From Asterella californica (taxonomy: Eukaryota; Streptophyta; Marchantiopsida; Marchantiales; Aytoniaceae): DNA of 64,000 nt. The notes beneath the pieces are model-generated. The model saw only the letters and a list, made by a program, of their open reading frames with translations, was not told where the DNA came from and made no database searches. This document shows positions 15,059-52,837 of this stretch, piece by piece (within the stretch, counting starts at the first letter, position 1; each line of letters starts with the position of its first letter). The stretch lies in the NCBI GenBank assembly GCA_036924285.1, contig JAYKYS010000002.1, positions 36,254,501 through 36,318,500 on the forward strand, given 5' to 3'. Made by a program: the position numbers and the translations under genes.

Positions 15059-15613
15059 AGGTAGAGAGATGCAAGAGAGAGCTTTGCAAGGGGGCTTGAC
15101 ATGAGGAACGTAAGGTTCCACCTAAAGAAAATAGAGTATGGGTGAGGATGCGGATGTATTCTTGATTGTGTGAGAAAAACATGAATGTGAGCGGAATGAC
15201 CAAATTTTTTGATTTTGAGCTTTTTTTACAGTTCAAGGGAGTTTGAAATTCGATTTTGAGAGGTTTCTCGAGTTTTTTGACGTTTTCAAGGACACCCACC
15301 TATGGTGTCTTGTCAGGAAGGGTCAAATTAAATAAGATATATCATTTCTTGAATTTTTCATGATGATGACAAGTTAGCATTTTGAGGGGGTTAGAGATGA
15401 GTTTTATGAATTCTGAGAGCACTTCATCCGTAGAACGGTGACCTTCGATTTGAAGGCTTTTGAGTTCTTTTTGGAGGAACTAAAATTTTCAGAGTTCTAC
15501 CTCTATCCACACCACATATATAGTGTGGTCCTACTTTCACTTTGCCAACAATCATACCCAGTTTCTTTTCATTTAGAGATTGTTTGATTAGATCAGGCTC
15601 GTGACAGTGTACA

Positions 15614-21506: not shown

Positions 21507-21761
21507 TCAGATGAATTCACTCGTTCGTTGTCCATGATCATGACTACTGTCCTGATCACTGAGCAAGCGGTTATCCGTTACTAAACAGATAAAGCTAGTA
21601 GGTACTAAATTTACTGGTAGAAGCTGTCAGCTCACAGCAAATTGCGTGCTCTCCCAGAACGATTGGCGGCATCAAGGGACTGAAGCTAGATAGGAAGCAG
21701 GGACGAGGTTCTGAGCATCGCAGCGAAGGAAGAACCTTCTCCGATCCTGCAGCGGCACACG

Positions 21762-22991
21762 ATGGCCTCACCAGAGGAAGTGAAGCTCTTCATTCAAGTT
21801 TTAGTCTGTTTAATTTCGACAGCTGTTCATGTGCACTCAGCTCCTATCACTATCACAACGGAGACATTCAAGAGGTGTCAGAAGGGTGAATGGTTGGGAA
21901 TTCCTGCTGATTGCTGCGTGCCGAAAATTGTGGCAGGATCAGGACCTGTAACTGATTTCTGGCCAAAAAAGGTGTTATCCACTGGTCCTCTGAGAGTCAG
22001 AAAAGCTTTGCAGTGCTTGGCCGGAGAGGAACTGGGAACCTACAAGAATAAGTTGCACAAGGCTTATGAGCTGATGCGTGCTCTTCCAGATGACGATCCA
22101 CGCTCGTTGAAGATGCAAAACGCAATCCACTGTGCTTATGGAACCGGCTCCTTTCTCCAAGATGGCTCGAATAATCTCACCATCGACGTTCACATCAACT
22201 GGTTCTTCCTGCCTTGGCACAGAGCTTTTGTGTTCTTCCATGAGAGAATCCTCCAGAAGCTGCTTGATGATCCTGAATTCACTCTTCATTTCTGGAACTT
22301 CGATAATGGTGCCGACCATTCTCTGGATGTCAACAGCTCGAATGCTTGTTTCAAAGCAGGTCATTTCATACCAGCCTTATACAGCGACCCCTCGACTGCT
22401 ACGTTCGAGTCGAATCGCTCCACCAGGGCTTTCGATTCTTCCAGGCCTGTGGACCTCTCATTTGACACCCCAAAATTCAGTCCTAGCAAGGGACCTCCAC
22501 GTTTCCAAAGACGTCGATTCGAGCAGGTTGTGCATCTGAACGCTGACATCATGCACAAGACCCTGTTCGAAGATGATACTGCTCGCTTCATCGGTCAACC
22601 ATACAGAGCTGGAGATGCACGCATCGAAGTAATGACGGCGGGAGCTGGAACCGTGGAGATGCATCCTCACTCGAGTGTGCATGCTTACATCAGTGGAAAT
22701 ATGCTCGCGCCGCAGAGCGCGCCCTCCGACCCGATATTCTTCCCTTTCCATGCCAACGTGGAGCGGCTTTGGGCAGTGTGGCACTCGCTGAGCGAGAATC
22801 ACGTGGATCCAACTGATCCGGACTGGCTCGATGCACAATTCCTTCTGTGGGACGAGAACGCCGCCTTGAGGAGAATAAAGATCAGGGACTTTCTGACTAC
22901 AGAACACCTTGGCTACACATACCAGAAGGTGAATGATGAGAGTTGGATCTCCTTCCTACCTGATCCTGATGATGTTCCATTTCACAGCTAG
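21762..22991 (+). CDS. Secreted polyphenol oxidase (tyrosinase/catechol oxidase family), short form
   Basis: A 409-residue type-3 copper enzyme expected to oxidise phenols to quinones. Residues 1 to about 26 form a signal peptide (hydrophobic VLVCLISTAVHVHSA), suggesting secretion or a vacuolar route rather than a plastid thylakoid. Putative CuA ligands are His123 (HCAYG), His144 (VHINW) and His153 (PWHRAF). Putative CuB ligands are His303 and His307 (HPHSSVH) and His330 (PFHANVERLW). A DWL-type segment follows from about residue 354. The C-terminal KFDV shielding domain of typical plant enzymes (about 500-600 residues) is absent. The Cys that forms the thioether bridge in plant catechol oxidases, HCAYC in sweet potato, is Gly127 here. 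The frame is intronless and starts at the first Met that yields the signal peptide. Activity is plausible but unproven. Confidence 0.92.
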   Translation: MASPEEVKLFIQVLVCLISTAVHVHSAPITITTETFKRCQKGEWLGIPADCCVPKIVAGSGPVTDFWPKKVLSTGPLRVRKALQCLAGEELGTYKNKLHKAYELMRALPDDDPRSLKMQNAIHCAYGTGSFLQDGSNNLTIDVHINWFFLPWHRAFVFFHERILQKLLDDPEFTLHFWNFDNGADHSLDVNSSNACFKAGHFIPALYSDPSTATFESNRSTRAFDSSRPVDLSFDTPKFSPSKGPPRFQRRRFEQVVHLNADIMHKTLFEDDTARFIGQPYRAGDARIEVMTAGAGTVEMHPHSSVHAYISGNMLAPQSAPSDPIFFPFHANVERLWAVWHSLSENHVDPTDPDWLDAQFLLWDENAALRRIKIRDFLTTEHLGYTYQKVNDESWISFLPDPDDVPFHS

Positions 22992-24427: not shown

Positions 24428-24716
24428 TGTCACGATGTATGGTAGCAAGAACCCAATTCATAGCACCACTCCAACAGGGGAGGAAAACCTTCGAACAAGG
24501 AAGGAGGCTCTCGCAGGCTTCACAAGAGGAAGAAAAGAAGGAACATACTATCACTAAAGAGACTTACTTGGGGGCAGAGCCCCTTCTCAATATATAGGGA
24601 GAGTCAAAAGACTTTTGGGGTTGAGTCTCCGTAACATAGTTGTACCAAAGTCTTACAGGACTTGTGCCTAAAGTCTTACAAGACTTCAGGAGCTTGTACT
24701 ACTACTCATGTCAATA
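24428..24716 (-). repeat. 3' LTR of split copia 3
   Basis: 289 bp, the same length as the LTR at 45090-45378 and highly similar to it in reverse complement. On the minus strand it starts TATTGACATGAG (partner TGTTGACATGCG) and ends CATCGTGACA. A polypurine tract (GAGGGGGAC) directly precedes it at 24717-24725. Confidence 0.92.
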
Positions 24717-24729
24717 GTCCCCCTCAAGC

Positions 24730-25992
24730 TCATATCTATCTTTAACACCTAGACATAATCTGAAAATATCAAATTTATCTCTAGGTAAAGCTTTAGTGAA
24801 TATATCAGCAACTTGTTCACCTGTAGGTACATATCTCAGATCTATCTCTCCAGCCAATACTTTTTCTCGAATAAAGTGATAATGAACCTCTATATGCTTG
24901 GTCCTAGCATGAAAAACAAGATTAGAAGCAAGTTTAATATTGCTGATATTGTCTGTGTGTAAAGCAACAAGGTCAGAAAATTCCACACCCATATCTTTCA
25001 GTAAGGTATGAAGCCAAACGGATTCACAAGTAACATTAATGACACCTCTGTATTCTGCTTCAGTCGATGACAGAGCAACTGTAAGTTGTTTCTTCGACTG
25101 CCAGCTAACAGCAGACTCTCCAAGGCTGAAGATAAAACCTGACCTAGATCTTCTATCTTGAGCACTTCCTGCCTAGTCTGCATCAGTAAAACCATGTAAC
25201 AAGAGAGGACCACCCGCTGCGTAGTGAAGTCCATACTGGATTGTGAACTTCACGTATCGTAGAATCCGTCGAACTGCATCAAGATGAGGTTTCCTAGGTG
25301 TCTGCATGAACTGACTAACTAGGCCTACAACATAACTTAGATCAGGTCTAGTAATGATCAAGTAGATCAGGCTGCCTACAATCTGTCTATAGAAATTAGG
25401 ATCTGCTAATAGCTCACCATTCTCAGCATTCAACTTCAGAGAAGACGCAAGAGGGATAGAGATAAGCTTACAAGCTGTCATTCAAAACTGTTCTAGCTTA
25501 TGCAGAGCATACTGTCTCTGTAACAACCATGTATCACCTCCGTCCTTGATGAACTCAATAGCTAGAAAGTATTTCAATTCATCTAGATCTTTCATATCAA
25601 ACTCTCCTTTCAGTTGATCTTTCACTTGCTTGATAAGGCTCTTAGAGGTTCCAGTGATAACAAGATCATCTACATAGATGTTGATCAGTATTATGTTATC
25701 CCGACCTGCAAAGAGTACAATCAGGAGTCTGAACTACAAAGACGGAAGCCAAGCAATAGTAGAAACGAGTAAGCTTGGCATTCCAAGCTCTTGGAGCCTG
25801 CTTAAGTCCATACAAGGACTTCTGGAGTCTACAAACTTTATTTGGATACCTCTGGTCTTCGTATCTAGGGGGTTGCACCATGTAGACCTCCTCCTGCAGA
25901 TCTCAGTTCAAGAAAGCATTATTGAAGTCTATTTGATGCAGTTGTCACCCTTTACTTGTAGCCAATGTCACAAGGGTGCATATGGAAGCCAT
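24730..25992 (-). pseudogene. Split copia 3 reverse transcriptase C-half and RNase H
   Basis: Reading leftward from 25992: KMASICTLVTLA, the D-F-N-N-AFLN block, [22 protein letters not shown], the intact active site YVDD (25665-25676), FDMKDLDELKYFLA, then IVGSLIYLIITRPDLSY (25173-25481). RNase H follows with FHARTKHIEVHYHFIREKV (24711-24992). Several stops and frameshifts are present, so the protein is not continuous, but the YVDD is preserved. Confidence 0.9.
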
Positions 25993-26430
25993 TTTTCTAT
26001 TTGTGTAGTTGCCTTACATATTCTTCTTGGTTGGCATAAATATGGCAGATGCATACTCTCCACGCAATATCTCCACCAAGTCTTGAGTCCTACTTTTGAT
26101 CAAGGCTACCTTCATATCACTATATCTATAGAGACACTGAAAGGTTGACGTATAAGTAGTCAACTCGATTCTATACCATGTCCTTTTAAGGTACCCAAAT
26201 CCTTCATACTTAAGGTGAAACCTTTCCTGACTCTCAAGAACTCGTGTATCTTACGTCTCTCTCCTCTTGTAAGTTTGGTCTCAATCTCTGACTCCCAAGT
26301 ATCTTTCTCATGACGCTAAGAGGTTGAAAATGACATCTTTGGTTGCTATCTAGCAACATCGAGAGCAATACTCTGCTGCTCGTCACCAACGGACTCAACC
26401 ACGTCCTCCTGAACAACCCTTGTAATCCTA
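25990..26430 (-). pseudogene. Gypsy reverse transcriptase, N-terminal part, cut at the inversion breakpoint
   Basis: The segment shows the linker before gypsy reverse transcriptase (TREERRKIHEFL, then FTLSMKDLG) and then YRYSDMKVALIKSRTQDLVE, GEYASAIFMPTKKNM and GNYTNRKM. The family normally continues with a C-G-D-Y-R type motif. Here the ATG of the final Met (25992-25990) is followed by copia codons. The expected continuation (CEDCIYHRQTKSDKYA) is at 48874 onward. One stop and at least one frameshift occur. Confidence 0.85.
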
Positions 26431-26579
26431 GCTGCAAGCTCCACATGCACTTTCACCACATCCGTTGACGTCTATGGATGAGGATCGCATACCCCGCTCC
26501 CAACTTTTATCTCTACCTTGTCAGAAGACAAAGAGCTCATGAGTGCTTGAGTACTCATACTTGTCGATTGCATCCGACG

Positions 26580-27505
26580 TTGTTCAGTCAGTTGAAGGTT
26601 AGCAATCCAAGTCAAGCAATTCAGATCATTTGTTTGACCTAACACTTGACGACGTGAAGCTTTCGACACTGAAGGTACCATCATAGTATCAATAAGAAAT
26701 CCTATCGCTCGCTCTCTCTCGTCGACGTTGATCTCCAACAACTGCTGTAACTAGGCATCTCATACAAGCCAAAGATCCCCCTCTCTATAAGCGTAGAAAG
26801 TCAGAAAACTCAACAACGTAGACAATATTGCTCTATGTTGTCCTACTAAGTCCTCCACTGCCATGGGTGATCGCTCTGCGACTCTCATTACTTGAGACAG
26901 TCGTCCACCGTAAGGTATGCTGGTCGTTGAACTTAGGTATCAAGTTCGTCCACCATAGACGTGGATGATATGCACGAGATCCCGCTCGTGCTACATCTAG
27001 TAAAACTGCCGATCTAATCCATGATTGTACTGATGTACACTCGTCACTTCTCGTGCACAAGAGTCACCTAACAAAAGAACGTTCTCCAATATATACACTA
27101 CAAGCAACTCTTGACGTACTTGTGGACGTCGTAAGATCCTCAACATCTTTCAGAACATGATAGACTACAAGTCGTGCAAACCATGACCTTGTCTTGCACG
27201 TGTGTGGACTTGACATGGCCACCTTGCAATCACCAAATAAATCCCTCAACTCGCTTGAGGTCCGACACCTCCAGTAGCAAAATATTTGACGGTAATGTTT
27301 GTTGGTATTCTCTAACTACTCACATCCGTAGTAGATTAAGGTATCTCTATATTAATTGCGCCACATGACATGATGATACGTCATGCACTTTCATCTCTCT
27401 CCACATACAAGTACCACTGTACACATATGCCGGACTGCAAGATTGCAGCCAAACCAATGCTGATCCCATGAATAGATCGAGCAAACGTACACCTTGTTCT
27501 AGATT
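26580..27505 (-). pseudogene. DNA (cytosine-5) methyltransferase-like domain inside a gypsy retrotransposon
   Basis: About 300 codons on the minus strand hold C5-methyltransferase motifs in the correct order. The SAM-binding motif I is GVRLLDLFMG (near 27470-27490), continued after a frameshift by ISIGLAAILQSGI. Motif IV is VIARWPCQVH, with the catalytic Cys codon at 27213-27215. Motif VI is YILENVLLLGD, with ENV at 27078-27086, about 42 codons after the Cys as expected. A late motif is SRAYHPRLWWTNL (about 26941-26980). Motif X-like sequence is VLGQTNDLNCLTW (about 26605-26645). Motifs IV and VI share one frame, interrupted by two stops. At least three shifts break the rest, so this copy is inactive. 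It sits between protease and reverse transcriptase. Captured C5-methyltransferases are known, to my knowledge, in retrotransposons of some algae. Confidence 0.8.
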
Positions 27506-27779
27506 GCTATACAATTGATGTAGTCCCCAAAGGTGATAACGTCATAAGTCCAGTAGAAGAAACATCACTCGACTCCACTATTGGTGGTATAAAAGCTTAG
27601 TTCCAAGCTTGATGTACCAACTCATCAGCGTACCGCTGCAACCTGATCTCGAACTCCAAAGTGGAACATGCAAGGTAGACAAAACCACTCCACTCCTACT
27701 AGGTAAGTTCTTCGTCTCTTCTAATACCGGAATATCATCCGCATGAGCGTTGTCTTCCAACAACTTACTGGACCAAGTA

Positions 27780-28400
27780 ACAACCAAACTGAATGCAGCA
27801 ACTGATGCCATGGTCCTTGGCTATGATGACTCAGTTCTACTAGTGAACCGAATTGGTAAACGACTCATCCGCTGATCATTGACTGACATTTTGATCTAGA
27901 GGAGGCTATCTCTTTCCAATAGTCGATGATGAAATCTGTTAGGTATAAAACGGTTCTACCAATCAAGACGTCGTAAGATTATGCGCTCGTAACAATGGCC
28001 TTGGCTTTCACCATCGAGTCATCCATCAAGCGGTCAGTTGAGCGCTTACAATCAATCTCTCTTGCGTCATAAACTAGGTTGATTTTGTTGACTCACCTAA
28101 AGATGCATGAATATGCAATGGGATACTTCTCTATGTCGACATGCATAGACCTAATCCCACAACTGATGCATTTTCTGACATCAAAAGTTGTGCTCTGGAG
28201 TCCAACAAGACTCATTACGGTCTTTGTATCTTCCTAGAAGGTCCAACCAAACAGAAGATCTCACTTCTGTTGTTTAACAACACCACACATTGTGTCAACT
28301 TAGCCCACTCAGTGGTTGACCTAGTTGACAACTCTGTCAATCTAGCATTTATTGTTTGCCATGAACCTCAATTTAATGGACGAGTCTACCATACAACTTT
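27780..28400 (-). pseudogene. Gypsy retropepsin-like protease region
   Basis: The segment reads TTEWAKLTQCVVLL, then VLLDSRAQLLM, which aligns with the D-S/T-G-A active site of retropepsins (Asp codon 28200-28202). The Gly of the triad is Arg here. Downstream, YDVLIGRTVLY and FIIDYWKEIAS follow. Retropepsin would cut the gag-pol precursor. The changed Gly and several stops indicate a dead copy. Confidence 0.7.
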
Positions 28401-28804
28401 CAGTCACTTTCGTACTAACATCATCGTCCTCGCAAAGAGTGGCAGCCAACCGAAATACTAGAGCTAATTCGACTCGCAATGTCCTCATGTCTGTGGCTGA
28501 GAACAACGAGAATACATTATTGACGTAGCTGTCCCAACATTGGATTGGACATCGCATCTATGGATGTAATCGACTGACATGTGTCTCCTCCAGTCAACAA
28601 TGCTCGTGCACTCAACTCAACTACACCATCAGTAGATCGACTAGGAACCATTGATGATGTTCTCATTGCTTCCGATAAAGTAAAATACTGATAAAGTCTG
28701 ATCTGTCTACTAGCTTCTCCTCTCTGTGGATCAAACTCCGTTGATGCCTCTCGTGACTTGTAGTGCTCCTCGAGTCATTGTTGCGGATGCATCAACCTAT
28801 GCAG

Positions 28805-30009: not shown

Positions 30010-31290
30010 GTCATACTATCTTCATTTCTTCTAGTGAACAATCTGAATAGTCATAGCAACATCGGAGGTAATGTTAGGAGTATGATCGATTTGTCCTCTA
30101 CCAAGTGCTAGACCTCTATCTCCAGCTCGACCACCTTGGTCTCCTTTAGCTCGTCCTCGTCCTCGTCCTCGTCCTCGATATGTACTTGTCATCGAGGCTA
30201 TCTCTTGTCACAACTCCAGATGGAGATCAAAACATCGATCGGTGGTGTGATCATATCGATGACAATAGTCACAATGTTTTTGCACTCAAAGATGTCTCAG
30301 GAGTCTCATGTCCACCACTTTGTCAACATTCTATCTTGTGGTGGTTACCATCACAAGTCCAATGGTGATACAACTTGTTGCCGACTAAAGAACGAAGGCA
30401 ATGACTTCTACTCTTCTATCCTCTAAATGCTCCTTGGGTCTGTAGAGATGCACCATGATCTCGTGAGTCACTTTTTTTGTGAGCATGTTGCTCCCGAGAA
30501 GAGGTAGATACATCTTGTGTCACATCTCTACTAAACCCAACAGTCACCACTCTCTCCTTCACCATTTGAGCTTTATCTGATCAGCCAAACCAAAGACGAC
30601 GACCAACTTAGGTGGCGTCGCTTGTAACAGAGTCACATCTCGGACTCTCAGTCGCAACTCTCTGTCCAGTATCCCATACCATAACTAAATTGTGTGTGTC
30701 TCTGTCACGTCTTACGTGAAACTGATCAACCGTCTCATGCGAGTGTAAGCCTCGCGTAGACTCTCTCCAGTCTTCTACTAGAACTCTTGTAGACTCCTCA
30801 ACTTATCGGCCCGACACTTGATAGTTCTTCCGCAAACACCGGAAGAACTGAACCACATGGTGAAACCTTGGTGGTGTATCAGTGACACCTCCTCCATTAT
30901 TACTACCAACTCTCATCGTCGCACTAGAACTCGAAAGTGTAATGCCTCTTAAAACTACGTCAGTAGTGATAGAAACATAGTTGGAAGATCAATGTTATCT
31001 CCACAACTCAATCTCCACACTGTAATCCTGCCTAAACTCACGGTAGTCATCCATAAGCGGTTCTTCCAAGTGCTAAAACAACCCCTTCCATGTCATGAAG
31101 GGTATAAATAACTATGAGTTCTACATCTGCTGCATGTCGCATCAACTATCAAAGTCCTCGATGAAGTCATCCAACTCAAACATATCCACTGTACTCGAGT
31201 ATTGTCTGAGATCCTTTGTGATCTCAAAGATCTCATCCATATCTCACATGTCTAACCTCTACCAACTCATCCTCTAGATCGATATCCATC
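30010..31290 (-). pseudogene. Gypsy gag with CCHC knuckle and Arg-Gly tract
   Basis: The minus-strand frame opens near 31290 with MDIDLEDELVEV. It continues through a Retrotrans_gag-like block with GESLREAYTRMRRL near 30720-30780. A CX2CX4HX4C zinc knuckle (C-DY-C-HRYD-H-TTDR-C) lies at 30232-30273. It is followed by TYRGRGRGRGRAKG, encoded by CGTCCT-type repeats on the plus strand at 30147-30178. Knuckle and RG tract are nucleic-acid binding features. Many stops are present. Confidence 0.75.
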
Positions 31291-33020
31291 GTGGATCAAA
31301 ACTGATAGCAATGATTGATACATCAGTCTTTATGTGTAAACCCACCACGTACTATAGAGGAACCTCTCTAGAGTATTCTTGAGAACTTCGTGATGACAAA
31401 ACCTCGTGCCAACCGTGAACAAACATTTCAAATCAAAGCATTGACAACCAGGTACCAGCCCTTATCTGCTCATACCAAACTAACCTATCCTCTACTCGTA
31501 TGAGTACGAATGACATGTACCTACCATCATCACACAAACTCCTACAGTCTATCGGTTCACAAGTCCAACCTCACCAAGAGAGAAATAAAGTTAATCTGAC
31601 TGGTCCGCAATTGCATTCTCACTATCAACATCACACTAGAATGAAACCGCTCTGGAACATCAACACCACAAGCAAACGTGGCGTACAAACAAGAAGTAAA
31701 GCATGGAGGGGTCCAATCACAAGAAGTTCAAACGAGAACCCTCAACACAAAACATACACAAAAGAGAAATCCAGCCTCCCCGGACTAACTCTACCTCCAT
31801 ATGATAACCATATGTATAATATATGACAATTACGAATAGTGTATAGAGTCACTAATTAGATGTCTTACTAGCTAGTAGTCTCCACCAATATCCATCACGA
31901 TGCACTTAATATTCACACCACCAAACATCTTCTCACATGTACTACACATCCATCTAACTCGTAAATATGCTACTACAATGCTACCTCTCCCTACTAGGAT
32001 GAACGTCATCACATCGCTACTCTCTGGGTGTCCAATATGTGCTTCTAAAACCTTTAAGAAGTGTGTAAATATCTACATGTTTCCTTATGTAACACCAAGA
32101 GCAAGTGGTTAAGTCGTAGATGAACTATAAGCTACGAGTAGTTAAGTAACTTCACAAGGAATAGTGTCAGGATGGTTGACCTGATTTTGAGACTTAGACA
32201 CAACTAGAAAGTTGTCTCTAACTCGCACGTTGGCTTGTTGGCTCCGCTCCATAAACCAAAAACTCACAGTCTGCTTTGATGTCTTCAAAGCCTCTCTAGC
32301 TCACAACTCACTACACCCTTTGTAGAAAGAAATCATTAACAACTGACAACGCGAGTCCGTGGATGCGAATCAGCCGACCCACTATGAGAAATTCGACTGT
32401 CATAGTCAATTTTAGTAGCATTTCTACACCAACTCTCCACCAAATACTCCAAAGAACTAGTACAGGACCCAGCAATCTGATCAGCGAGCGATCAGAACTC
32501 TGAAACTGAACTTCTCGCACACGTACACTTGTAAATAAAAATACCACCGATCTATGCACTCTGAAAATACCAGCGACAAAACTTCACAAACTGAAATCAC
32601 TCAAATCAGACCTCACGATTCACTTCTTTCGAGTAATCTTCTATTCATCCATATTGAAATGCCAACCGGCATCACAAAGATCACTCTAGTCAAGCCAAAC
32701 CCACTGTACGCATTAGAGAATCAATGTTATCTTTACTCGACTCATCTACCATAGCCAAGAGCTTGAAGACTCAACTCGAAAGAAGTGAGACCTACAAACT
32801 CTTACCTCGCAGTGTACTCCCCAAAAAGAGATCCGAACCAAGAACTTCTCCTAACATCGCTAATGGTCTTAACGGGACTAGCTACCGTACACTCTGCTAA
32901 CTAGCAGAGCCGCTACACATGACATGCCATGCTAACTGGTTTGCTGACGCTGGTTCCTGTGATCTCACGCTAGCAAGCTCAAAGTTTAAATACTTGCGGG
33001 GCTTACCATGTCCGCAGGCA
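31291..33020. other. Region right of the gypsy gag, probably including its 5' LTR
   Basis: The composition resembles the element rather than the AT-rich spacer that begins near 33060. No LTR partner was found, partly because the 3' end of this element is hard to define after the inversion. No gene was recognised. Confidence 0.35.
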
Positions 33021-36720: not shown

Positions 36721-39583
36721 GAAAGGAGGAGATGCAATTCTGTAGTGTAAACACACAAAGAAGATTAAAAAGAAGAAGTTCAAATATAGATGAGAAAGAC
36801 CATATCTGATATACCAACTGCTAGCCAATGGAACTAACTCATTGCAACATCAGATGGGATGGACGTCAGGTATGTAATGAGAATTAAGTTAAGACCTTTC
36901 TATTAAAAGTGTTACAAATCAAGAGATTGGCTGACAAGACATATGGAGGAATTAATCCGAGATACGAAGGAAGGACATAAGGAAAGATCGGAGAAGAAGA
37001 CGAACACGGATAGATCGGATCAACTAGATACAGAAGAAATCCGGGAAGTGAATACATTTTTTATACAGATCATCCGGAAGAGATACAACGAAGAAGCAAC
37101 ACAAAGATTGAATGAATAATCAAAATTATGTCGAAGGTAATGGAACTAGATGAACGAACGGCGGATGACAGAAGGGTATGATCACAACACGTGGGAGCAA
37201 ACAAAACCATGACATAATCAAGTACCATTAGCTTATCGTTGAAACACAAAACCCCAGAACAGCAAATTATTATGTACCATATGAAGTACACACGGATGAA
37301 TGATCAAGGAATGACAGCGGGATGTTACATGAGCGGGCTGGAATCATGCACATGAGGTGATCGACGATTGAAAAGATACAACTGGAGAAGATCTGCAACT
37401 ATAGCGCTAACAAGAGTCGAGACAATTTCAAAGTTCAAAGAGTTAGAAATCGGCGCTGTCGAGGTGAGAGTTTTTCTGGGAAGAGCGGAACCTTCTGGCT
37501 GTGATATGATCGTAAAGGTTGTGTTACATCTACTCAGAGAAGCGTTGGACTTCTGACTGTGGTTACTTACTCAAGAGTAGGCTCAGGTCATAAGGGCACT
37601 ATAGACACTCATACAGGTTGATTGGATCCTCTAGTATGTTTAGAAAATGAAAATCAAGTCGAACTAGCAATAATAAGATCAGACAGTGAACTTTAACAGT
37701 CAAGAATAAAAAACATATGATGACTTAGATCTCAAAACTTCTCTTACATGTAAATGAGGCCCTGATGAACACACATACAAAGTTTCAACCTGATATCAAA
37801 TTCGAGCACCGAGATATGATCAAAAGCGTTTTGAGTAAGAATTTTATGACAATTTCTGATACCCAGACAGCTATTTTGAACTAGAACAAAGAACTGGCTC
37901 GATAACTTTCGATGATTCTTACAGAATTTGGAGTATATAGCATGCTGAACATCCCTATGAAGTTTGACTTGATTGTACACATTTCTCCAGCTCTCGATCT
38001 CTGAAGTTGCTGCTCTAGATTGAGAGTTTTTCAGGCCCCTTCTGCTTCAGCGGTCGCCTTGAATTACTCACTCACTCAATTGACATGAAAATTTGTTAAC
38101 AGTCGTAGCCCTGCTGACAATGAAGGCGACCATGAAGGTTTGAAGCGATTTTCTTAATTCTGCTGCGATTGACACCGAAAATCCCAAAATCAACCAAAAG
38201 TGATGCAATCCTGACACAATCCATAACTTTAATCTCCTTCTTTATTGATCAAAAATTTCACCAACAGTGACTGGCAGGACGAGCCTTATCCTCTTGTGTT
38301 CTCAGATTTCAGAATGTTCTTATCAATTGCTCGAACTCCTCTTTAGACCCCTATTTCTAAGTTTAGTATTTCATTAAAGACAAAAATAGACTAATAGGAG
38401 TTCATAGCTTCACTTTCCTGTCCTTTTGTGCCCCAAACCACGTGGTGACTTCATTTCACACATAGACTACCACGTCAAGCCCTTAAAGTGCCAGAGTAAA
38501 CTTTAAACTACATGCGAAGATATGTAAAACGACACGTAATCTCGAAAGATAACCTAACCACGCTAGGAAGCATGCATGGACGACATGTAAGTGCAACCCA
38601 TGAGCTTAAACTCTATCAACACGATAAACAACCTACTAGGACTCAAAATATATATTATCATCCAGAATCGACTTCTCTGAGGTCCTAACTTCACTCAGAG
38701 AGACTAATTCTTGACAGAGAGATGAATTATTTACTATGTGAAATGATTCACATCGGGACAACACAAACTGTGGTAGTCTGAGTAGTAAAACCTATTTCAC
38801 TTAGCAAAACCTATCCAAAGAAGAGGAACGAGAGAACATGAAGGTTGATTGTTCAATTCTAGCACTGCAATAGAATCAGAAAGCAAGTAGGAAGAGAACA
38901 ACATGCATAACAATGGCTCCGATCAGATTGATGGTAGCAGATGTGCCGAGAGCTAGTGAAGTCAAAATCAATTTCACCGTGAGAAGTTCTCCAAAGTATG
39001 ACCTCGAGGAGAAGAAGAATACGAGAGAGTGACTAGAGCAGTTCGAGAAATTCAAAGACCTTCGTATCGCAAACAAAGGAGCGTAAAATTCACAACAAGC
39101 TCAAAATTTCGATGAGTGGTTGTAGAATGCATATCCAAAATAGGCAACGAGTAAGAAAATCTACTATGCTTGGAGGTGCAATGACAAATTGTGGAGTCGT
39201 CGTTCGAGTTGGATCAATAGAAGACAAGAAGGAAGAGATATCACAAAAAGCATGACCGCGATGATGATATTGAATGCGGAAGATGGAGGACAAGTCGACA
39301 GACACGGTACATGATAAAACGACTTAGATGCGAATGTGTGAGACTACAAGGGATGAAGATAAGGAAGATAGCATCTTCATACGCAAGTCCATAGTTCACG
39401 TGGATATCACCTACAAAGTCATTGAGAGAAGAGAAGTATGTAGATAGCTCAAGGAAGAGAACTCGGAGCATAAGAATTCTAGTGGTAGAGCATAGATCCC
39501 AAATATTAACCACATCAAGAGAGAAGCCGTAGGAGATAAGGAGAAAGGTGATGATCTTGGAAAGTTCAGAATCATCCGAAGAA
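36721..39583. other. Spacer with probable eroded retroelement sequence
   Basis: Purine-rich sequence at 36720-37560 may be the continuation of the gypsy relic, but no motif supports it. The remainder to 39583 holds only short frames without family features. Confidence 0.35.
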
Positions 39584-45089: not shown

Positions 45090-45378
45090 TGTTGACATGC
45101 GTAGTAGTACAAGCTCCTGAAGTCTTGTAAGACTTTGGGCACAAGTCCTGTAAGACTTTGACACAACTATGTTACGGAGACCCAACCCCAAAAGTCTTTT
45201 GACTCTCTCTATATATTGAGAAGGGGCTCTGCCCCCAAGTAAGTCTCTTTAGTGATACTCTGTTCCTTCTTTTCTTCCTCTTGTGAAGGCTGCGAGAGCC
45301 TCCTTCCTTGTTAGAAGGTTTTCCTCCCCTGTTGGAGTGGTGCTATGAATTGGGTTCTTGCTGTCATACATCGTGACA
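45090..45378 (+). repeat. 5' LTR of split copia 3
   Basis: 289 bp, starts TGTTGACATGCG and ends CGTGACA. Highly similar to the reverse complement of 24428-24716. Confidence 0.92.
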
Positions 45379-45950: not shown

Positions 45951-46770
45951 ATGAGTAGAATAGATACGTTTTCAGCCATTACCGGTGAGCCTTTAGACAA
46001 AAACAACTACTCCATATGGAAGTATCGCATGTCCGTCTTCTTGAAAGATCAAAGCCTGTTTGGTTTGATCATAGGGACAGATGCGAAACCCGTTGGAGTT
46101 GATACAGATCCTGATGTTGATGCATGGAACAAACGAGCTTGTCAAGCTATGCATTATCTTTCTTTGTGTGTCTCACCTTCCATGTTTGGTTACATACAGT
46201 CTGTTGATACCCCAAGAGATCTAGGATGCACTAGCTAATGTTTTCCAGACATCTACCAAAGCTCGTAAGTTACAACTCAAACAACAACTCTTAGATGTTA
46301 AGAAGGGTTCATTGAGCATTACAAATTATGTTTATCAAGTGCGAGGTCTAATTGAGCAGCTTAACAGCATAGGGGTGAAAGTAGAGAATGATGATCTCAT
46401 CCTACACACCATCAATGATCGTGGGAAAGAGTACAAACCTTTAGAGACTTCCATTGCTGTCAGAGATACTTTTCCCAAGTTCGATGAGTTGATTCTTATG
46501 TTAGTGTCAGAAGAGATTTGTCTTCAGGGCAATGGTGGTTCTGTCTCATCACAAGAGCAAGCTTTCTTTGCTAGAGGTAGAGACAGAGGACGAGGAAAGA
46601 GCTTCAGTGGTAGAGGTAAGAACCGATTTGGTTCTTCTGGTCGATGTCAGTTCTGTCAGCAGCAACACAACCTTCGACCTGACCATCAGCAACAGCAAGC
46701 TAAAGGAGGGGTGAGCAGCGGTTCTGTGCATATTGCAAAACCAAAGGTCATGTGATCAAGACTTGCTTCA
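45951..46770 (+). pseudogene. Split copia 3 gag
   Basis: The frame starts at 45951 and shows the gag N-terminus (GEPLDKNNYSIWKYRMSVF). A frameshift near 46235 separates it from the second part (46312-46755: VYQVRGLIEQLNSIG and an RGRDRGRGK basic tract). A CX2CX4HX4C knuckle (C-AY-C-KTKG-H-VIKT-C) lies in another frame at 46725-46766. The product is therefore not translatable as one protein. Confidence 0.9.
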
Positions 46771-46894
46771 AGGGGCAAGCAGACATCAGGTCTGGTAAGC
46801 TTCCACAGCAAAACTATGTGTCGACAGAGGAATCTTTTTCAGATGACAGTCTTCTAACGATGACACATGTCATGGGTTCCATGAGCAAACCTGC

Positions 46895-48520
46895 TGATGA
46901 GTGGTTTTGATTCTGGAGCTTCGAACCACATGACAGCACATGGTGAATGATTCAGCCAGAAGGAGCCACTTAAGACACCAGCAATAGTCTATACTGGTGA
47001 TGATACCCAGCACAACATTACACATATGGATACAGTTCCTCTATCTGTTGCATCTTCAAACATTTTTGCTTTGGGAGATGTACTGTATGTGCCCACCATT
47101 ACTAGGAATCTAGTTTCAGTAGGTCAGATGGTGGAGCACGGTTATCAAGTTCAGTTCAACAGCAAGGGATGTATTGTTGAAACCAGCGATAACAATGTAG
47201 TTGCCAGAGGGTCAAGAGTAGGAAGGTTGTTCAAATTGGATGCTGTTCAATCTCAACTTCAAGCCACGATGTTTGTTCATACATCTGGAATCTCTGATTT
47301 GGAGATGTGGCATAAGAGAGTAGGCCATATGAACTATCAGCGGTTGAAGACCTTATCTACGTCAGAGTTAGTTACAGGTCTTCCCAAGTTCACATCTCCT
47401 ATCCCATCTCAGATTTGTGAAGCTTGTCAGTTTGGCAAGCAAGCTAGACAACCATTTCGCCATCAGGGCACTAGAGCCTCTAGGGTGTTGGAGTTGATAC
47501 ATTCTGATGTATGGACTACATCTCAAGCAAGCTTGAATGGTTCTCAGTACTTCGTCTCATTCGTAGATGACTTCTCGTGATTTACGTGGGTCTACTTCCA
47601 CAAGGCCAAGTTAGACGTCTTTGCTGTGTTCCAGTCATTCAAGACCCTAGTTGAGAAACAATATAACCATTGCATCTTACGGCTCCGTTCGGATGGAGGA
47701 GGTGAGTTCATCTCTCGTCACTTTGACACTTTTTTGCAAGAGCATGGGATCAAGAGAGAGGTCACGTGCAGCTACAGCCCGCAACAGAATGGTGTAGCAG
47801 AGAGGAAGAACAGACACATTACAGAGTCAACACGTGCGATGCTGAATGAGAAGTCTATGCCTAAGTGTTATTGGGCAGAAGCTGTTGCATGTGCTGTCTA
47901 CCTCATGAACCGTGCACCAACTACAGCGGTACATAAGAAGACCCCTACGAGGTATTAGTAGGCAAGAAACCAGACCTCTCATGTCTCAAAGTGTTTGGTT
48001 CTATATGTTTTGTACATGTACCAAATGAAAGACGCAGCAAGCTAGACCCGAAAGCTGAGAAGTGTATCTTCTTAGGCTATGCTTCTGATACGAAGGGATA
48101 TACGTGTTATATCTCAACTTCGAGGAGACTGCTCATCAGTAGAGATGTTGTTTTTGATGAGTTGTTATCTTGGTATCAGGTTACATCAGGCTCTGTTGCT
48201 ATTTCACCTATTCTATCCTCTGTCCAATCAGTTCAGGTTGGCTCTACAACTACTCAAACCACTAGTTCAGATAGTGGTAGTGCTGTATTTCATCCAATGC
48301 GCATGAGAGCTCCTTGGTCTGGCCAAGTCCCTGTAGTTGCTATACCTACGGTTCAGGTCCCTCCACTTGTTGTTCAACTTATACAGGTTGCACATTCCAA
48401 TAGCTCTCCAGTGTTGCAGCAGATGATCAATGAGCAACGCAGTGCAGATATTGTGCATGCTTTTAACGACCACGTCAGCAGCTCTCAGCCAAATCAGAGA
48501 TCTGAAGCTGGACCATAAGG
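46895..48520 (+). pseudogene. Split copia 3 protease and integrase
   Basis: The protease site DSGASNHMT begins at 46909 with the catalytic Asp preserved. Gag-pre-integrase has MWHKRVGHMNYQ and CEACQFGKQ. Integrase catalytic residues are visible in LIHSDVW, LRSDGGGEF and QQNGVAERKNRH, so the DDE triad is preserved although a TGA (47578-47580) and frameshifts interrupt the frame. The 47991-48518 segment is the integrase tail and linker (FGSICFVHVPNERRSKLDPK, then LISRDVVFDE). Confidence 0.9.
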
Positions 48521-48530
48521 TCAATCTGAT

Positions 48531-48873
48531 ATGCGAAGGTCCACCAGAGCGAGACATCCTGTCCAACGTTTTCAGTGTGAAGGTTTCTTGGCTGAACACC
48601 ATGCCTACATGGTGAATGTCGTGCATGAGCAGGAATCAAATTCTCTTGAGGAGGCGATGCATCAGGCAAAATGGGTGCAAGTCATGCAAGTTGAGCTTTC
48701 AGCTTTGCAAAATCAGCAGACTTGGGAGCTGGTTGATTTACCTTATGGTAAGAAAGCTATTGGTTGTAGATGGGTTTACAAAGTCAAGAGAAATTCGGAT
48801 GGTTCAGTCCACAGGCGTAAGGCGAGACTTGTGGCTAAAGGATATGCGCCGCAGTATGGTCATGACTTTGATG
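48531..48873 (+). pseudogene. Split copia 3 reverse transcriptase, N-terminal part
   Basis: RRSTRARHPV, ALQNQQTWELVDLP, IGCRWVYKVK and KARLVAKGYAPQYGHDFD are the standard opening of copia reverse transcriptase. The next residues of the family (a short F-S-P-V-V-K-M type motif) are not here; the enzyme resumes at KMASICTL on the minus strand at 25995. A handful of codons appear lost at the junction. Confidence 0.92.
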
Positions 48874-49995
48874 TGTGAAGACTGTATCTATCATCGACAG
48901 ACGAAGTCCGATAAGTATGCCTTGCATACGTCTGAAGAGATCTTTGATGCAATTGGGCAAGCAAATAATTTACTCCAAGGACAATATTGATGGTGCGGTA
49001 TGTACTCTAACATGCAACAATTTGTTAGACGATGTATGGTTTGTAATCGAGTACAAGCATCATTCAATGCTCCTACTCCATAGCTACACCCCTTATCAAA
49101 TATGAGGTTGGATGATCATTCGAGTTTAGATTTTGCAGGACTCTTATTGTTGATCGTACATCATCGATATGTATTAGTGATGTTGGAGCAATTCTCCAAG
49201 TGGATTGAGTTGGCAGCATTACCAAACAAGGTGACTGAAGAGAAGCGTATGCATTCCTCGATCGAGTGCTCAATCGTTTTGGTGCTCCAGCTGAAGTGTT
49301 AACTGACCAAGGCATAAAGTTTCTTGGTGAGTTGCAAGTCTTATGTGATCAATCGATGATTGATCATTGTACTATGTCTCAAGATTATCCTAAGACAGAT
49401 GGTTTGGCAGAGAGAGTTGTTCAAACAATGAAAAAAGGATTGCATAAGTATGGTCTACAAAGAGAAAATGAGACTTTTAGTTATCGTGGTTGGCTATGAG
49501 ATATCGATGTAATTGATAAGCATCATTGGTGTCTTTTTCACCGTACTCTTTACTATATGATTTAGAACCAGATTTACTTGCGGCCATTCGACGTGATTCT
49601 GCTGAGATTTTGGACCTTGATGACCCACATATGTGAAGGAGAGCATGTTCTCAACGTGCCAAGGTGTTTCAGAGAGTTATGTCGATAATATTTGAGAACT
49701 TAGCAATTTCTCAACATCGAGTGTGGGATGCGACTATCTAGGAAGGAGGTTACTGACAGTCCATACATAAGTTTCATCTTGACGATTATTCTTATTCGCA
49801 GCAGATTGCACCGTCGACCTTAGATGTTACTGTAGGTGCACTATCTTACATGTGCGTGAGGTGTTATCTTTTAAGGTTCTCATGTTAGAGGACCGTGATG
49901 GTGTTGTTTGGAAGCATCATGTGCATAATTGTGCATCATGTCATGTTCCAAACATCGATGGTACAATAGATCCAAGCTTAGTAGCAGTACAAGTT
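48871..49995 (+). pseudogene. Gypsy 3' half, copy 1: reverse transcriptase fragment fused to integrase
   Basis: Starts MCEDCIYHRQTKSDKYALHT, then EEIFDAIGQA, which is the continuation of the gypsy reverse transcriptase cut at 25990. It jumps directly to the integrase zinc region (NLLQGQYWW-like, then QQFVRRCMVCNRV), so the reverse transcriptase core and RNase H are deleted. Integrase acidic residues are in SLDFAG (near 49120), VLTDQGIKFLGE (49290-49330) and DGLAERVVQT (near 49400-49430). Faint traces of the C-terminal region run to about 49995. Stops and shifts are frequent. Confidence 0.82.
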
Positions 49996-50015
49996 GGCTC
50001 AAGTGGTTGATGGAG

Positions 50016-50045
50016 TCCGACAAGCTTACAAGGAAGCTTGTCGGA
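50016..50045. repeat. Perfect hairpin between the two gypsy integrase copies
   Basis: TCCGACAAGCTT (50016-50027) and AAGCTTGTCGGA (50034-50045) with loop ACAAGG. Confidence 0.65.
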
Positions 50046-50084
50046 TGAGCTTTGATCTTATAGGAGTATGACTTCTAGGTAGTG

Positions 50085-51762
50085 CATAGACCTAGAGTTG
50101 CAAACCTAGATGTCAATGGATTGAGTCGCAACTCATGCACAAGTTAGCAAGATCTGACTCGAGCTCGATGACATGACGAGGTTGATGAGGAGATGGTGCC
50201 AAGGTGACATGCATATGAACTTCTTTGTGTGTTGGTCATGAACTCTAGTATGGAGGACTAGGTCGTATTTTTCTCATGTCAGAAAACAGATGATGACTCT
50301 CTAGATCCTCAGTGTGGAGATGATGTTCCATATTAGCAAGATATCCATGACGATGTGACAATAATGGAGTATTTACGTACTGACGTGGTGGTAGGCACAA
50401 TGAATGCTAAGGAGCGAGATCACGTCCTCCAACAAGCGAAGAGATTTTGATGAGAAAGATGACATGTACTTTGAATGAGAGACGATGAGAGAGTACGGAC
50501 AGTGTCACATCCATTTCCTAGGGCACAATTAGTACGATATGCCCATGAGGAGTTGAGACATTTTGGAGTGAAGCGTACACATAGCTTACTCCAAGGACAG
50601 TATTGGTGGCGTGATATGCACATCGACGTATAGCAGTTTGTCGTATCGATGTATGGTTTGTTATCGAGTACGAGCATCGTTTAACGCTCCTATTCCATAG
50701 TTACATCTCTTATCGATTGGAGTTGAGTTATCGTTGGAGTTTGGATTTTTATGAGACCTTTATCATTGACTATACTATCACCACCAGTATGTGTTGGTGA
50801 TAGTGGAGCACTTCTCCAAGTGGATTGAGTTGGTGGTATTACCAGACAAGACGAGTGAGAGGATAACGTATGTGTTCTTAGATCGAGTTCTGAGTCGTTT
50901 TGGAGCACCAGCTGCTGACAGACCAAGGTATAGAGTTTCTTGGTGAGTTTCAAGCCTTATTGATCATTAGACTATATCTCAAGATCATCATGAGGCGGAT
51001 GGTTTGGCGGAGAGGTTGTTCAGACGGTGAAGAGAGGATTTTGCAAATATGGCTTGCAGAAGGACCACTTGAGAGACTAACATTTGCAGTTACCATGGTT
51101 GGCTAAGGGTTACCGGTTTAGCCGGCAAACGTCTTTGGCTTCCTTCTCATCGTATTTTTTATTGTATGATCGAGATCGAGATCTATCTTCAACCATTCAT
51201 CGTGATTCTGCTGAAATGCTGAACCTTGATGACTCAGATATGTTGGTGAGAGCATATTCTCAACGAGCCGAGACATTTCAGAGAGTCATGTCTATAACTT
51301 TTGAGAACCTAACGATTGCTCAACATAGAGACACGTTGTCATATGCGACTATCCGAGGAGGAGGTTAACGGCCGTCCATTTGCAAGTTTCATCTTGATGA
51401 TTATATCTATTTGCAGCAGATTGTACCAACGACGCTGGATGTAACTGTATGACGTACTATTTTATGAGTGCATGAGGTGTTACCTTCTAAAGTACCTCAT
51501 GTTAGAAGGCCGTGATGGTGTTGTTTGAAAGGACCATGTGCGTAATTGCATGTCATGTCATCTTCCAAACATCGATGGTATTGTTGATACATGCTTAGCT
51601 GTTGTACGCTCGAGCTTGAGATGTATGTTGTGTGGGTATGCTGGTGGAGCAACCCGTATGTTGGTGTGTGATCATTGTTCGAGAGGTTGGTACATGTCGA
51701 GTTTGATTCCACCTTTCATTGTCATTCTTATTGGACGGTGGATTTGTCCTCGGTGTATATAG
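50085..51762 (+). pseudogene. Gypsy 3' fragment, copy 2: RNase H end, integrase and PHD-like tail
   Basis: Begins at the end of RNase H (RVANLDVNGLSRN) and runs through MNAKERDHVLQQAKRF and the integrase zinc region (HEELRHFGVKRTHSLLQGQY). Acidic catalytic positions are in WSLDF, LTDQGIEFLGEFQ and ADGLAER. The integrase C-terminal part is ASLASFSSYFLL to AQHRDTLSYATIRGG (51084-51368). The last 75 residues (51538-51762) hold CMLCGYAGG, CDHCSRGW and WICPRC, a PHD-type zinc finger in which the His and one Cys are replaced (WYMSSL). Homologous to copy 1 at 48960-49995. Broken by several frameshifts. Confidence 0.82.
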
Positions 51763-52837
51763 CAAAGATAGCCTATTAGATCTTTACGTGGTATGGATTG
51801 AAGGCAGACGACTAACAATGTGGTGATGTAGAACCTAGCCTCCTGATCCTTGCACCCATGAAGATATGTATCACGTAGTTGGGATATGAGGCTATCTGGA
51901 GTTAGAGGGACCTAACCGTCAGTTAAGAGAGCAATTGTGGTACACTTGTTTATGTGTATGACACTGTCCATGCGTTATGTGTATTTGTGGTGTACCTATG
52001 ACAATGTTGTATGTTGTATAGCGATGTGTATGCGCATAATAGCTGTCATGTCAGCATAGCACATCGGCTAGATTGACCGAGTGCGTAGTGACTAGTCTCG
52101 ATAGGGCCGTTAGTGTCATTAAGGCATGTTCTTGGGCTAGTCTCACTAAGGATAAACTTCGCATGTAAGGCTTATACGCTTCAGTTCTTCAAGTTGAACC
52201 TTCAAGCTCATGGCTATGGTAGATTGTCTTCTTGAGTGCAACCTAGATTCTCTGTGCACATAGTGGATGTGGCTCGACTTTAGTGTTTGGTATTGCCGTT
52301 GGCATGGTGGAGTGAATACCATCCTTATTATTGTGGTACACATGTGTATGTGTATGACATTGTCCATGTTTTATGCATATGTGTTGTGTACCTTTGACAA
52401 CGATGTATGTCGTGTAGCGATGTGTATGCACACGACAAGGATTCTGATTGCAGAAATGTATAATTTTTCAAAAAGCAAAAAATTAAGAGAAAGATATGTA
52501 CAATGACATGTACAATGACATGTATTGGTTTGAGGTCGAAGGTTAAAATCAGGATGCATGGTGATGATCGAGATGACAACTGATGTCTACTACGTGAGAA
52601 ACCTCGACAGTGAGGTTCAACTGGGTGCATGAGAGATGTTTCTAGAGTATGATGGTTTCAAATGCATATTGAAAGATATATAGATAAGATAGGATGACTC
52701 AAGACAAGCGATTGGATGAATGCTAAAGAGAAAAAAGACGACAAGGATCGAGAGAAAATCATAACAAGGTTGCAACTTCAAGATGACGATCATGTTGCAA
52801 ACTTGAGGATGAGTTTGACTAATATTATAAGTAGGAT
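51763..52837. other. Region after the gypsy copies, possibly its 3' UTR or LTR
   Basis: No gene was recognised. It contains a spaced direct repeat (listed separately) and a short tandem ATGACATGTACA near 52500-52521. Confidence 0.4.
51934..52440. repeat. Spaced direct repeat of about 110 bp
   Basis: 51934-52048 and 52331-52440 share TTGTGGTACAC, GTGTATGACA, TGTCCATG, GTGTACC and TAGCGATGTGTATGC at an offset of 397 bases. The sequence between them is not repeated. They could be LTR remnants of the gypsy element, but this is not shown. Confidence 0.6.

What the first reader, a model, noticed from the sequence alone, without database searches (positions are those of the whole stretch)
26580..27505. 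A Ty3/gypsy retrotransposon carries a DNA cytosine-5 methyltransferase-like domain
Seen: on the minus strand, between a retropepsin-like site and the start of reverse transcriptase, C5-methyltransferase motifs appear in order: LLDLFMG (motif I), WPCQ (motif IV, catalytic Cys codon 27213-27215), LENV (motif VI, about 42 codons later), a late W-rich motif and a motif X-like LGQTNDLNCL. Motifs IV and VI share one frame. Known: C5-methyltransferases use exactly PCQ and ENV with SAM-binding DLF; captured copies have, to my knowledge, been reported in retrotransposons of some algae. Inference: this element family acquired a methyltransferase, perhaps to methylate its own or host DNA. This copy is dead, so intact relatives must be sought.
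Basis: partly seen in the sequence, partly recalled or inferred. Interest (0 to 1): 0.9.

Follow-up and report, generated by a model that had tools for sequence, protein, structure and literature searches.

The report
Jumping gene carrying a DNA-methylating enzyme
This is the wreck of an old plant retrotransposon that carried its own DNA-methylating enzyme; cleaner relatives occur in liverworts, so a trick published for algae also exists in land plants.

Summary
A frame-tolerant alignment places a whole cytosine-5 DNA methyltransferase (DNMT) domain at 27493-26577 (minus): about 60% identical to clean relatives, 7 frameshifts, 6 stops, score 729 against a maximum of 41 in 40 shuffles. Gag, zinc knuckle and protease regions lie upstream and Ty3/gypsy reverse transcriptase (RT) follows. 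Clean relatives exist in Marchantia polymorpha and Calypogeia fissa; partial ones are annotated in M. paleacea and Sphagnum fallax. By sequence and predicted fold the domain is DNMT3-like and not permuted. The kind is known: de Mendoza et al. 2018 reported KnitGypsy-Dnmt3 in the charophyte Klebsormidium. Apparently new, after ten paper searches: land-plant hosts; proteins that are gag-protease-DNMT and end before RT; and a second architecture (RT-RNaseH-DNMT-integrase, PHD in four of six) whose DNMT falls in the same lineage. Function is inferred, not shown. The window's own genome could not be searched (genome search did not complete).

The parts
26577..27493 (-). Decayed cytosine-5 DNA methyltransferase (DNMT3-like) domain; catalytic Cys codon 27213-27215 (WPCQ), motif VI Glu codon 27084-27086 (LENV)
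   Evidence: motifs; tblastn E 2.9e-60; frame-tolerant alignment, 60% identity, 7 frameshifts, 6 stops
30296..31240 (-). gag region of the same Ty3/gypsy element
   Evidence: P0015 residues 1-324, 34% identity, E 2e-42
30043..30273 (-). zinc-knuckle part of gag
   Evidence: P0015 residues 334-403; a CCHC motif starts at P0015 residue 334
27880..28506 (-). retropepsin-like protease region
   Evidence: P0015 residues 529-745 and P0016 residues 42-257, two frames; protease named from the DSGAQP motif (P0015 residue 636) and from a below-cut-off Asp_protease_2 match in P0034 (E 1.6e-4)
27650..27877 (-). linker between protease and DNMT conserved in the relatives
   Evidence: P0016 from residue 260, P0037 residues 578-649
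25990..26297 (-). 5' end of Ty3/gypsy reverse transcriptase, cut at P0016 residue 804
   Evidence: P0016 residues 696-804, 48-51% identity
24700..25989 (-). Foreign 3' half of a Ty1/copia RT-RNase H joined to the gypsy RT (not part of the DNMT element)
   Evidence: RVT_2 in two frames, E 2.8e-22 and 2.8e-18, profile positions 61-137 and 157-242
24428..24714 (-). 3' LTR of the copia element
   Evidence: 275 of 287 identical to 45092-45378; a G-rich tract directly upstream
45092..45378 (+). 5' LTR of the copia element, followed by TGGTATCAGAGC (primer site of copia elements, recalled)
46225..48872 (+). 5' half of a copia element (gag to RT), cut inside RT
   Evidence: Retrotran_gag_2, Pol_BBD, gag_pre-integrs, rve; RVT_2 positions 2-53
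48874..49980 (+). Probable 3' half of the DNMT element: RT from P0016 residue 805 on, a deletion, then integrase up to just before where a PHD finger would start
49998..51759 (+). Second, related 3' piece: RNase H end, integrase, PHD finger (51622-51756)
   Evidence: P0016 residues 1075-1189, E 1.6e-25; P0019, P0039; PF00628 E 0.0016, below its cut-off; PF17921 E 1.2e-8; 73% to 48962-49981
32659..32934 (-). Candidate 5' LTR of the DNMT element
   Evidence: 67% over 279 to 52040-52305, E 5e-26; best E 3.1 in the wrong orientation
52040..52305 (+). Candidate 3' LTR of the DNMT element

Best explanation
This is an old, dead copy of a bryophyte Ty3/gypsy LTR retrotransposon family whose first polyprotein is Gag - zinc knuckle - protease - DNMT, with RT - RNase H - integrase (probably with a C-terminal PHD finger) in a following reading frame. 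The DNMT is a DNMT3-like, non-permuted cytosine-5 methyltransferase that keeps the catalytic residues in nearly all relatives. Most likely (inferred) it is made as part of Gag-protease-DNMT, so in structural-protein amounts, is released by the element's protease inside the particle, and methylates the element's own double-stranded cDNA before or at integration. New copies would then arrive already marked and quiet, which limits harm to the host or avoids sensing of naked DNA, while a PHD finger on the integrase would read histone H3 to choose the site. Shown: domain, family, order of domains, catalytic residues, predicted fold. Inferred: particle packaging, cDNA as substrate, benefit, role of the PHD finger.
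For: Domain and copy. Family: 14 proteins with E<=1, best 4.6e-82; 5 with E<=1; 29 with E<=0.001, query included: 16 M. polymorpha, 1 Calypogeia fissa, 1 Sphagnum fallax, 11 unnamed. P0016 carries PF00145, RVT_1 and RT_RNaseH in one protein. Zinc-knuckle motif, protease motif and DNMT occur in one protein in, for example, P0015 and P0021 (M. polymorpha) and the unnamed P0028, P0034, P0035, P0036. DNMT3-like: PDB ranking for P0002 is DNMT3A E 6e-12, DNMT3B 1.4e-9, DNMT3C 6e-9, 4onj 1.2e-8 (listed as 'DNA methyltransferase'; a tobacco DRM by recall), named DRM2 1.6e-4, HaeIII 3.5e-4, HhaI 4e-3, DNMT2-type 7e-3; no DNMT1 or CMT among the 52 with E<=1. AlphaFold pLDDT 89.5, pTM 0.90; all 50 fold matches shown (of 161 with E<=0.001) are DNMT3A/B/C entries. 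Catalysis kept: motif IV Cys in 29 of 30, motif VI Glu in 39 of 40, motif VIII Arg in 38 of 38 domain rows that cover the site. ORF end: 13 of the 35 proteins that reach the end of the domain end 57-85 residues after it, P0034-P0036 end 109-141 after it. DNMT identity of the second architecture to P0002 (34-37%) is close to that of RT-RNase H between the two (36-44%). SymbioDIRS retrotransposon DNMTs methylate CG in yeast (PMC5890265, section read).
Against: No activity, expression or methylation data. The KnitGypsy-Dnmt3 enzyme showed no activity in yeast (called inconclusive by its authors). The window's DNMT stretch is not CpG-poor (o/e 0.88, rank 112 of 126 windows; the copia pieces are 0.31 and 0.42), so it bears no scar of heavy CG methylation. 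No Ka/Ks could be computed (no DNA of relatives). The ORF-end argument is soft: I did not check that these proteins end at stop codons, several are annotated 'partial' (P0021, P0023, P0026), and seven proteins do run on into RT or later sequence (six M. polymorpha models P0012, P0016, P0017, P0018, P0024, P0027, and Sphagnum P0037), some or all perhaps through predicted splicing. The PHD finger of the window piece is below the Pfam cut-off, and no bryophyte protein in hand joins DNMT and PHD.
Confidence: 0.7

Rival explanations
1. The enzyme's main target is not the element's own cDNA but host chromatin near the integration site (or RNA): a host-directed factor that spreads silencing around insertions or damps rival elements.
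For: A PHD finger goes with the DNMT in the sister architecture (P0019, P0039, P0040, P0043) and possibly here, a writer-plus-reader pairing like host DNMT3. No CpG loss in the DNMT stretch of the element.
Against: Placement after gag-protease points to the particle. No host methylation data.
Confidence: 0.2
2. The domain was captured from a phage or bacterial DNMT3-like methyltransferase rather than from a plant DNMT3 gene.
For: By one and the same blastp, a phage enzyme and not the DNMT3A fragment is the best hit of 17 of 19 element domains; P0002 scores 84.7 bits to Pelagibacter phage HTVC309P and 63.5 to DNMT3A. 202 phage records match P0002.
Against: PDB and fold rankings favour DNMT3A/B, though those libraries hold few phage enzymes. 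The DNMT3A row was a 165-residue fragment, which costs it score; two second-form domains (P0019, P0042) prefer it by E-value. No plant DNMT3 was available, and outgroups sit on long branches.
Confidence: 0.25
3. A host DNMT3 or DRM pseudogene that happens to lie next to a dead gypsy element.
For: The window copy alone could not exclude it.
Against: Relatives carry zinc knuckle, protease motif and DNMT in one protein (P0015, P0021, P0028, P0034-P0036), and P0016 adds RT and RNase H. DRM is permuted and this is not.
Confidence: 0.01
4. Chance motifs in non-coding sequence.
For: 0 Pfam hits in 6 raw frames.
Against: Score 729 against a shuffle maximum of 41; tblastn E 2.9e-60.
Confidence: 0.001

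Closest known systems
KnitGypsy-Dnmt3 of Klebsormidium nitens (de Mendoza et al. 2018, PMC5890265)
   Same: LTR Gypsy element of a streptophyte with a non-rearranged Dnmt3-type DNMT; intronless, several copies
   Different: Host is a charophyte alga; the paper's text puts the DNMT in the Pol polyprotein ORF, and its main text does not mention Marchantia, liverworts or mosses. Its sequence was not compared here, so P0034-P0036 or the window family could be its direct kin. Its domain order is in a figure I could not see.
SymbioDIRS-Dnmt3 and SymbioLINE-Dnmt of Symbiodinium (same paper)
   Same: Retrotransposons with captured DNMTs; SymbioDIRS enzymes active on CG in yeast
   Different: DIRS and LINE elements, other order of domains, dinoflagellate hosts
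DNMT3 (mammalian DNMT3A/B; Physcomitrella PpDNMT3b)
   Same: Order of motifs; best PDB and fold matches are DNMT3A/B
   Different: Host genes; 19-23% identity in the fold alignments shown; the element enzymes have an extra stretch of about 20 residues (YPxxLP in most) where the DNMT3A alignment has a gap. PpDNMT3b itself was not compared.
Chromoviruses (Ty3/gypsy with a chromodomain at the integrase end; recalled, and titles)
   Same: A histone reader at the integrase C-terminus

Membership tests
Cytosine-5 DNA methyltransferases (PF00145) | Profile match above the curated cut-off | tested here: met
   Of 14 relatives scanned, 9 pass (P0001, P0002, P0015, P0016, P0018, P0019, P0034, P0041, P0043), 3 are below cut-off (P0039, P0040, P0042), 2 have no match (P0017, P0037); window frames alone 0 hits
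Cytosine-5 DNA methyltransferases (PF00145) | PCQ Cys, ENV Glu, motif VIII Arg in order | tested here: met
   29/30, 39/40, 38/38 domain rows; window has all three. P0039, P0040, P0042 read ECQ and ENT
DNMT3 | Closest to DNMT3 among structurally known C5 enzymes, motifs not permuted | tested here: met
DNMT3 | Phylogenetic nesting within eukaryotic DNMT3 | tested here: inconclusive
   only one DNMT3A fragment, long branches; phage enzymes score as well or better
DRM | Permuted motif order | tested here: not met
   motifs I to X run in the canonical order; DRM2 entries match only residues 44-170 of P0002
MET1/DNMT1 and CMT | Similarity above other C5 classes | tested here: not met
   no DNMT1 or CMT chain among the 52 with E<=1
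Ty3/gypsy (Metaviridae) LTR retrotransposons | gag, protease, then RT-RNase H before integrase, Ty3-type RT | tested here: met
   window pieces by tblastn; RVT_1, RT_RNaseH in P0016
Ty3/gypsy (Metaviridae) LTR retrotransposons | LTRs flanking the element | tested here: inconclusive
   one pair, 67% over 279, in places that fit only if the segment is inverted
KnitGypsy-Dnmt3 | Same element lineage (RT and DNMT trees) | not tested
   its sequence was not obtained
Active DNA methyltransferase | Methylates cytosine in DNA | not testable with these tools
   needs an assay

The most novel reading that the evidence does not exclude
One ancient DNMT3-like module entered a Ty3/gypsy lineage and has since travelled within the element, from between RNase H and integrase to the end of gag-protease (or the reverse), in elements that also carry a PHD histone reader: a mobile writer-plus-reader. 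In the liverwort form it is made in Gag amounts. In Marchantia the one gene list I saw (Schmid et al. 2018, drawn up by Arabidopsis genes) names MET, CMT and DRM but no DNMT3, so the elements could be a main source of DNMT3-type enzyme and feed de novo methylation of the host genome; a review (PMC8566409) speaks of DNMT3-type enzymes in bryophytes, so this last step may fail.
Probability: 0.2. Interest if true: 0.85.

Novelty: new member of a known kind. Interest (0 to 1): 0.58.

Why it matters
DNA methylation is a main host weapon against transposons, so an element that carries and maintains the weapon is a standing puzzle. The published cases are in algae, where genetics is hard. Clean copies in Marchantia polymorpha, a plant with easy transformation and gene editing (recalled), would make the question of what the enzyme is for directly testable. 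Finding one DNMT lineage at two positions within Ty3/gypsy elements also suggests that the module is kept over long times and can move.

Tried and rejected
Single-frame Pfam scans of the window (0 hits) and phmmer of one window frame against the PDB (0 hits): the copy is too broken; relatives settled it. Chance and host-pseudogene readings rejected. A viral-contig scan with a DNMT alignment found one pattern match and no relative, so no DNA of relatives and no Ka/Ks. Phage and plasmid searches (202 and 4 records) left the ultimate donor open. CpG depletion as a trace of self-methylation: not seen in the DNMT stretch. Ten paper searches and passages or sections of eleven papers gave no report of DNMT-bearing gypsy elements in liverworts or mosses; [quoted passage not shown] I considered calling this a new variant; because KnitGypsy-Dnmt3 was not compared, I kept 'new member'. 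The single-inversion reading was tested by the copia flanks: no shared target-site duplication, which weakens it.

Full report
1. The observation. They are there: motif I LLDLFMG, WPCQ with the Cys codon at 27215-27213, LENV with Glu at 27086-27084 in the same frame 43 codons later, RLWWTN, and LGQTNDLNCL. None of the six raw frames matches any Pfam family, because the copy is broken. A tblastn with the relative P0002, in which no frame was chosen by hand, runs through the stops in one frame from 27620 to 26577 (41% identity, E 2.9e-60). A frame-tolerant alignment gives 27493-26577, 184 of 307 residues identical, 7 frameshifts, 6 stops, 16 residues missing; its score of 729 compares with a mean of 34 and a maximum of 41 in 40 dinucleotide shuffles, 32 for the reversed protein and 40 for the other strand. 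The window copy keeps the catalytic Cys, the ENV Glu and the motif VIII Arg.

2. What surrounds it. Relatives map the rest of the element on the same strand: gag 31240-30296, zinc knuckle 30273-30043, protease 28506-27880, a conserved linker, DNMT, then the first ~100 residues of Ty3/gypsy RT, 26297-25990. Gag and protease carry no Pfam match in P0015 or P0016; they are named from the CCHC and DSGAQP motifs and from weak matches in P0034. The gypsy sequence stops at P0016 residue 804, and a Ty1/copia RT-RNase H follows (25989 to about 24700; RVT_2), ending in a copia LTR at 24714-24428.

3. Where the other half went. On the plus strand a copia element (LTR 45092-45378, gag from 46225) is cut inside RT at about 48872 (RVT_2 positions 2-53) and runs into gypsy RT from P0016 residue 805 at 48874, then integrase, then a second related piece with RNase H, integrase and a PHD finger at 51622-51756 (PF00628 E 0.0016, below its cut-off). 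The two copia LTRs are 275 of 287 identical in opposite orientation. A weaker LTR-like pair (67% over 279, E 5e-26) lies at 32934-32659 (minus) and 52040-52305 (plus), again in opposite orientation, outside the gypsy halves. A single inversion of about 22.9 kb with one breakpoint in each element explains this. Against it: the copia flanks share no target-site duplication, and the integrase part occurs twice (48962-49981 and 50578-51598, 73% identical), so part of the plus-strand material may belong to another copy. An assembly error is not excluded.

4. The family. Protein searches gave 14 (E<=1), 5 (E<=1) and 29 (E<=0.001, query included; only the 7986 candidates sharing most words were scored) proteins. 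Of the 29, 16 are named Marchantia polymorpha, 1 Calypogeia fissa (P0025, full domain), 1 Sphagnum fallax (P0037, domain in three pieces), 11 unnamed; M. paleacea appears (P0003, the second half of the domain). P0015 (M. polymorpha) stands for 18 member sequences at 90% identity; whether these are separate copies was not checked. In the DNMT tree (19 of the 44 proteins, those with most of the domain, plus the window and six outgroups) the window falls in a clade of 12 rows (96/100): six M. polymorpha, Calypogeia, four unnamed and itself; it is 57-60% identical to the five of them compared.

5. Two architectures. In the first form the order is zinc knuckle - protease - DNMT in one protein (P0015, P0021, P0028, P0034-P0036), with RT - RNase H after the DNMT in P0016. 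Of the 35 proteins that reach the end of the DNMT, 13 end 57-85 residues after it, 12 of these with a shared tail like HPWSxWDV, and P0034-P0036 end 109-141 after it; so the DNMT seems to close the gag-protease ORF, RT being in a following frame. I did not check that the ends are stop codons; some are annotated 'partial'. Seven proteins run on into RT or later sequence (P0012, P0016, P0017, P0018, P0024, P0027, P0037); two of them (P0017, P0037) keep the tail. In the second form (P0019, P0039, P0040, P0041, P0042, P0043; unnamed sources) the DNMT lies after RNase H and/or before integrase, with a PHD finger in four of the six (P0041 and P0042 stop earlier). All element DNMTs in the tree lie on one side of a branch against five phage/plasmid enzymes and a DNMT3A fragment (100/100, midpoint root; the program warns of long branches and of odd letter make-up in the phage/plasmid rows and P0039), and share a stretch of about 20 residues, YPxxLP in most, where DNMT3A has a gap. 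The simplest reading is one captured module that changed place, or was exchanged between related elements; the outgroups are too few to prove it.

6. What enzyme it is. P0002 against the PDB: DNMT3A E 6e-12, DNMT3B 1.4e-9, DNMT3C 6e-9, 4onj 1.2e-8 (listed as 'DNA methyltransferase'; tobacco DRM by recall), named DRM2 1.6e-4 (only residues 44-170 align), HaeIII 3.5e-4, HhaI 4e-3, DNMT2-type 7e-3; DNMT1 and CMT are not among the 52 with E<=1. P0034 also puts DNMT3A first (1.9e-6), then DNMT3C and 3B, but HaeIII and HhaI come before 4onj. The AlphaFold model of P0002 (pLDDT 89.5, pTM 0.90, 26-row alignment) matches DNMT3 entries in all 50 rows shown (best E 9.6e-18, TM 0.83 by target and 0.64 by query length, 19-23% identity). 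Across relatives the catalytic Cys is kept in 29 of 30 domain rows covering it, the ENV Glu in 39 of 40, the motif VIII Arg in 38 of 38; three second-form proteins (P0039, P0040, P0042) read WECQ and ENT. Against a host-gene origin being settled: in blastp with the same settings a phage enzyme is the best hit of 17 of 19 element domains, though the DNMT3A row was a fragment.

7. How it probably works. Inferred: packaging as Gag-protease-DNMT, release by the protease, methylation of the element's cDNA. Support is positional and by analogy with the shown CG activity of SymbioDIRS enzymes; the KnitGypsy enzyme showed none in yeast, which the authors call inconclusive (section read). DNMT and RT-RNase H diverge at like rates between the two architectures (34-37% to P0002, 36-44%), which fits selection on both, but no Ka/Ks was possible. 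The DNMT stretch shows no CpG loss (o/e 0.88; window 0.69; other gypsy pieces 0.72-0.81 but the RT stub 0.45; copia pieces 0.31 and 0.42), which speaks against strong CG self-methylation having marked this copy.

8. What is known. De Mendoza et al. 2018 (PMC5890265; first two of seven parts, the activity and discussion sections, and passages read) described this kind in Symbiodinium and in Klebsormidium nitens (Gypsy). Its main text has no Marchantia, liverwort or moss. PMC12344493 (2025; passages) refers to streptophyte cases from that paper. Schmid et al. 2018 (PMC5784723; passages) list five M. polymorpha methyltransferase genes, MET, CMTa/b, DRMa/b, found by Arabidopsis genes, so an unlisted DNMT3 is possible; a review (PMC8566409; passages) speaks of two DNMT3-type enzymes in bryophytes, citing the Physcomitrella work (PMC6453930; passages). 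Ten paper searches found no report in bryophyte retrotransposons; subscription papers and supplements were out of reach.

9. Verdict. The locus is a dead member of a known kind, extended here to land plants, with an ORF layout and a second architecture that deserve follow-up. Copies in the window's own genome could not be sought, because the genome search did not answer in 14 tries.

Noticed in passing
window 25989/25990 and 48872/48874: Reciprocal junctions between a copia and a gypsy element, with copia LTRs (96% alike) in opposite orientation, suggest a ~22.9-kb inversion (or an assembly error). The copia flanks share no target-site duplication, which is unexplained.
   Followed up: partly
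window 48962-49981 and 50578-51598: The integrase-to-PHD part of the gypsy element occurs twice in the same orientation, 73% identical.
   Followed up: partly
window 39581-41444 and 52835-54702: Direct repeat of 1.87 kb, 95% identical; longest reading frames under 80 codons, no terminal inverted repeats found; nature unknown.
   Followed up: partly
P0039, P0040, P0042: Three second-form element DNMTs have WECQ instead of WPCQ and ENT instead of ENV, a joint change beside the catalytic residues; whether they are active is open.
   Followed up: no
window 24700-25985 and 46225-48855 against the gypsy pieces: The younger-looking copia pieces are strongly CpG-poor (o/e 0.31 and 0.42) while the DNMT-gypsy pieces mostly are not (0.72-0.88, RT stub 0.45).
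   Followed up: no
window 21690-22991, 57062-60052, 630-1391: Likely host genes: tyrosinase-type polyphenol oxidase, LRR receptor kinase, DnaJ protein (Pfam).
   Followed up: partly
window 10033-11813 (minus) and 15605-16108 (plus): Further copia-type remains: integrase and RT by Pfam at 10033-11813, gag at 15605-16108.
   Followed up: partly
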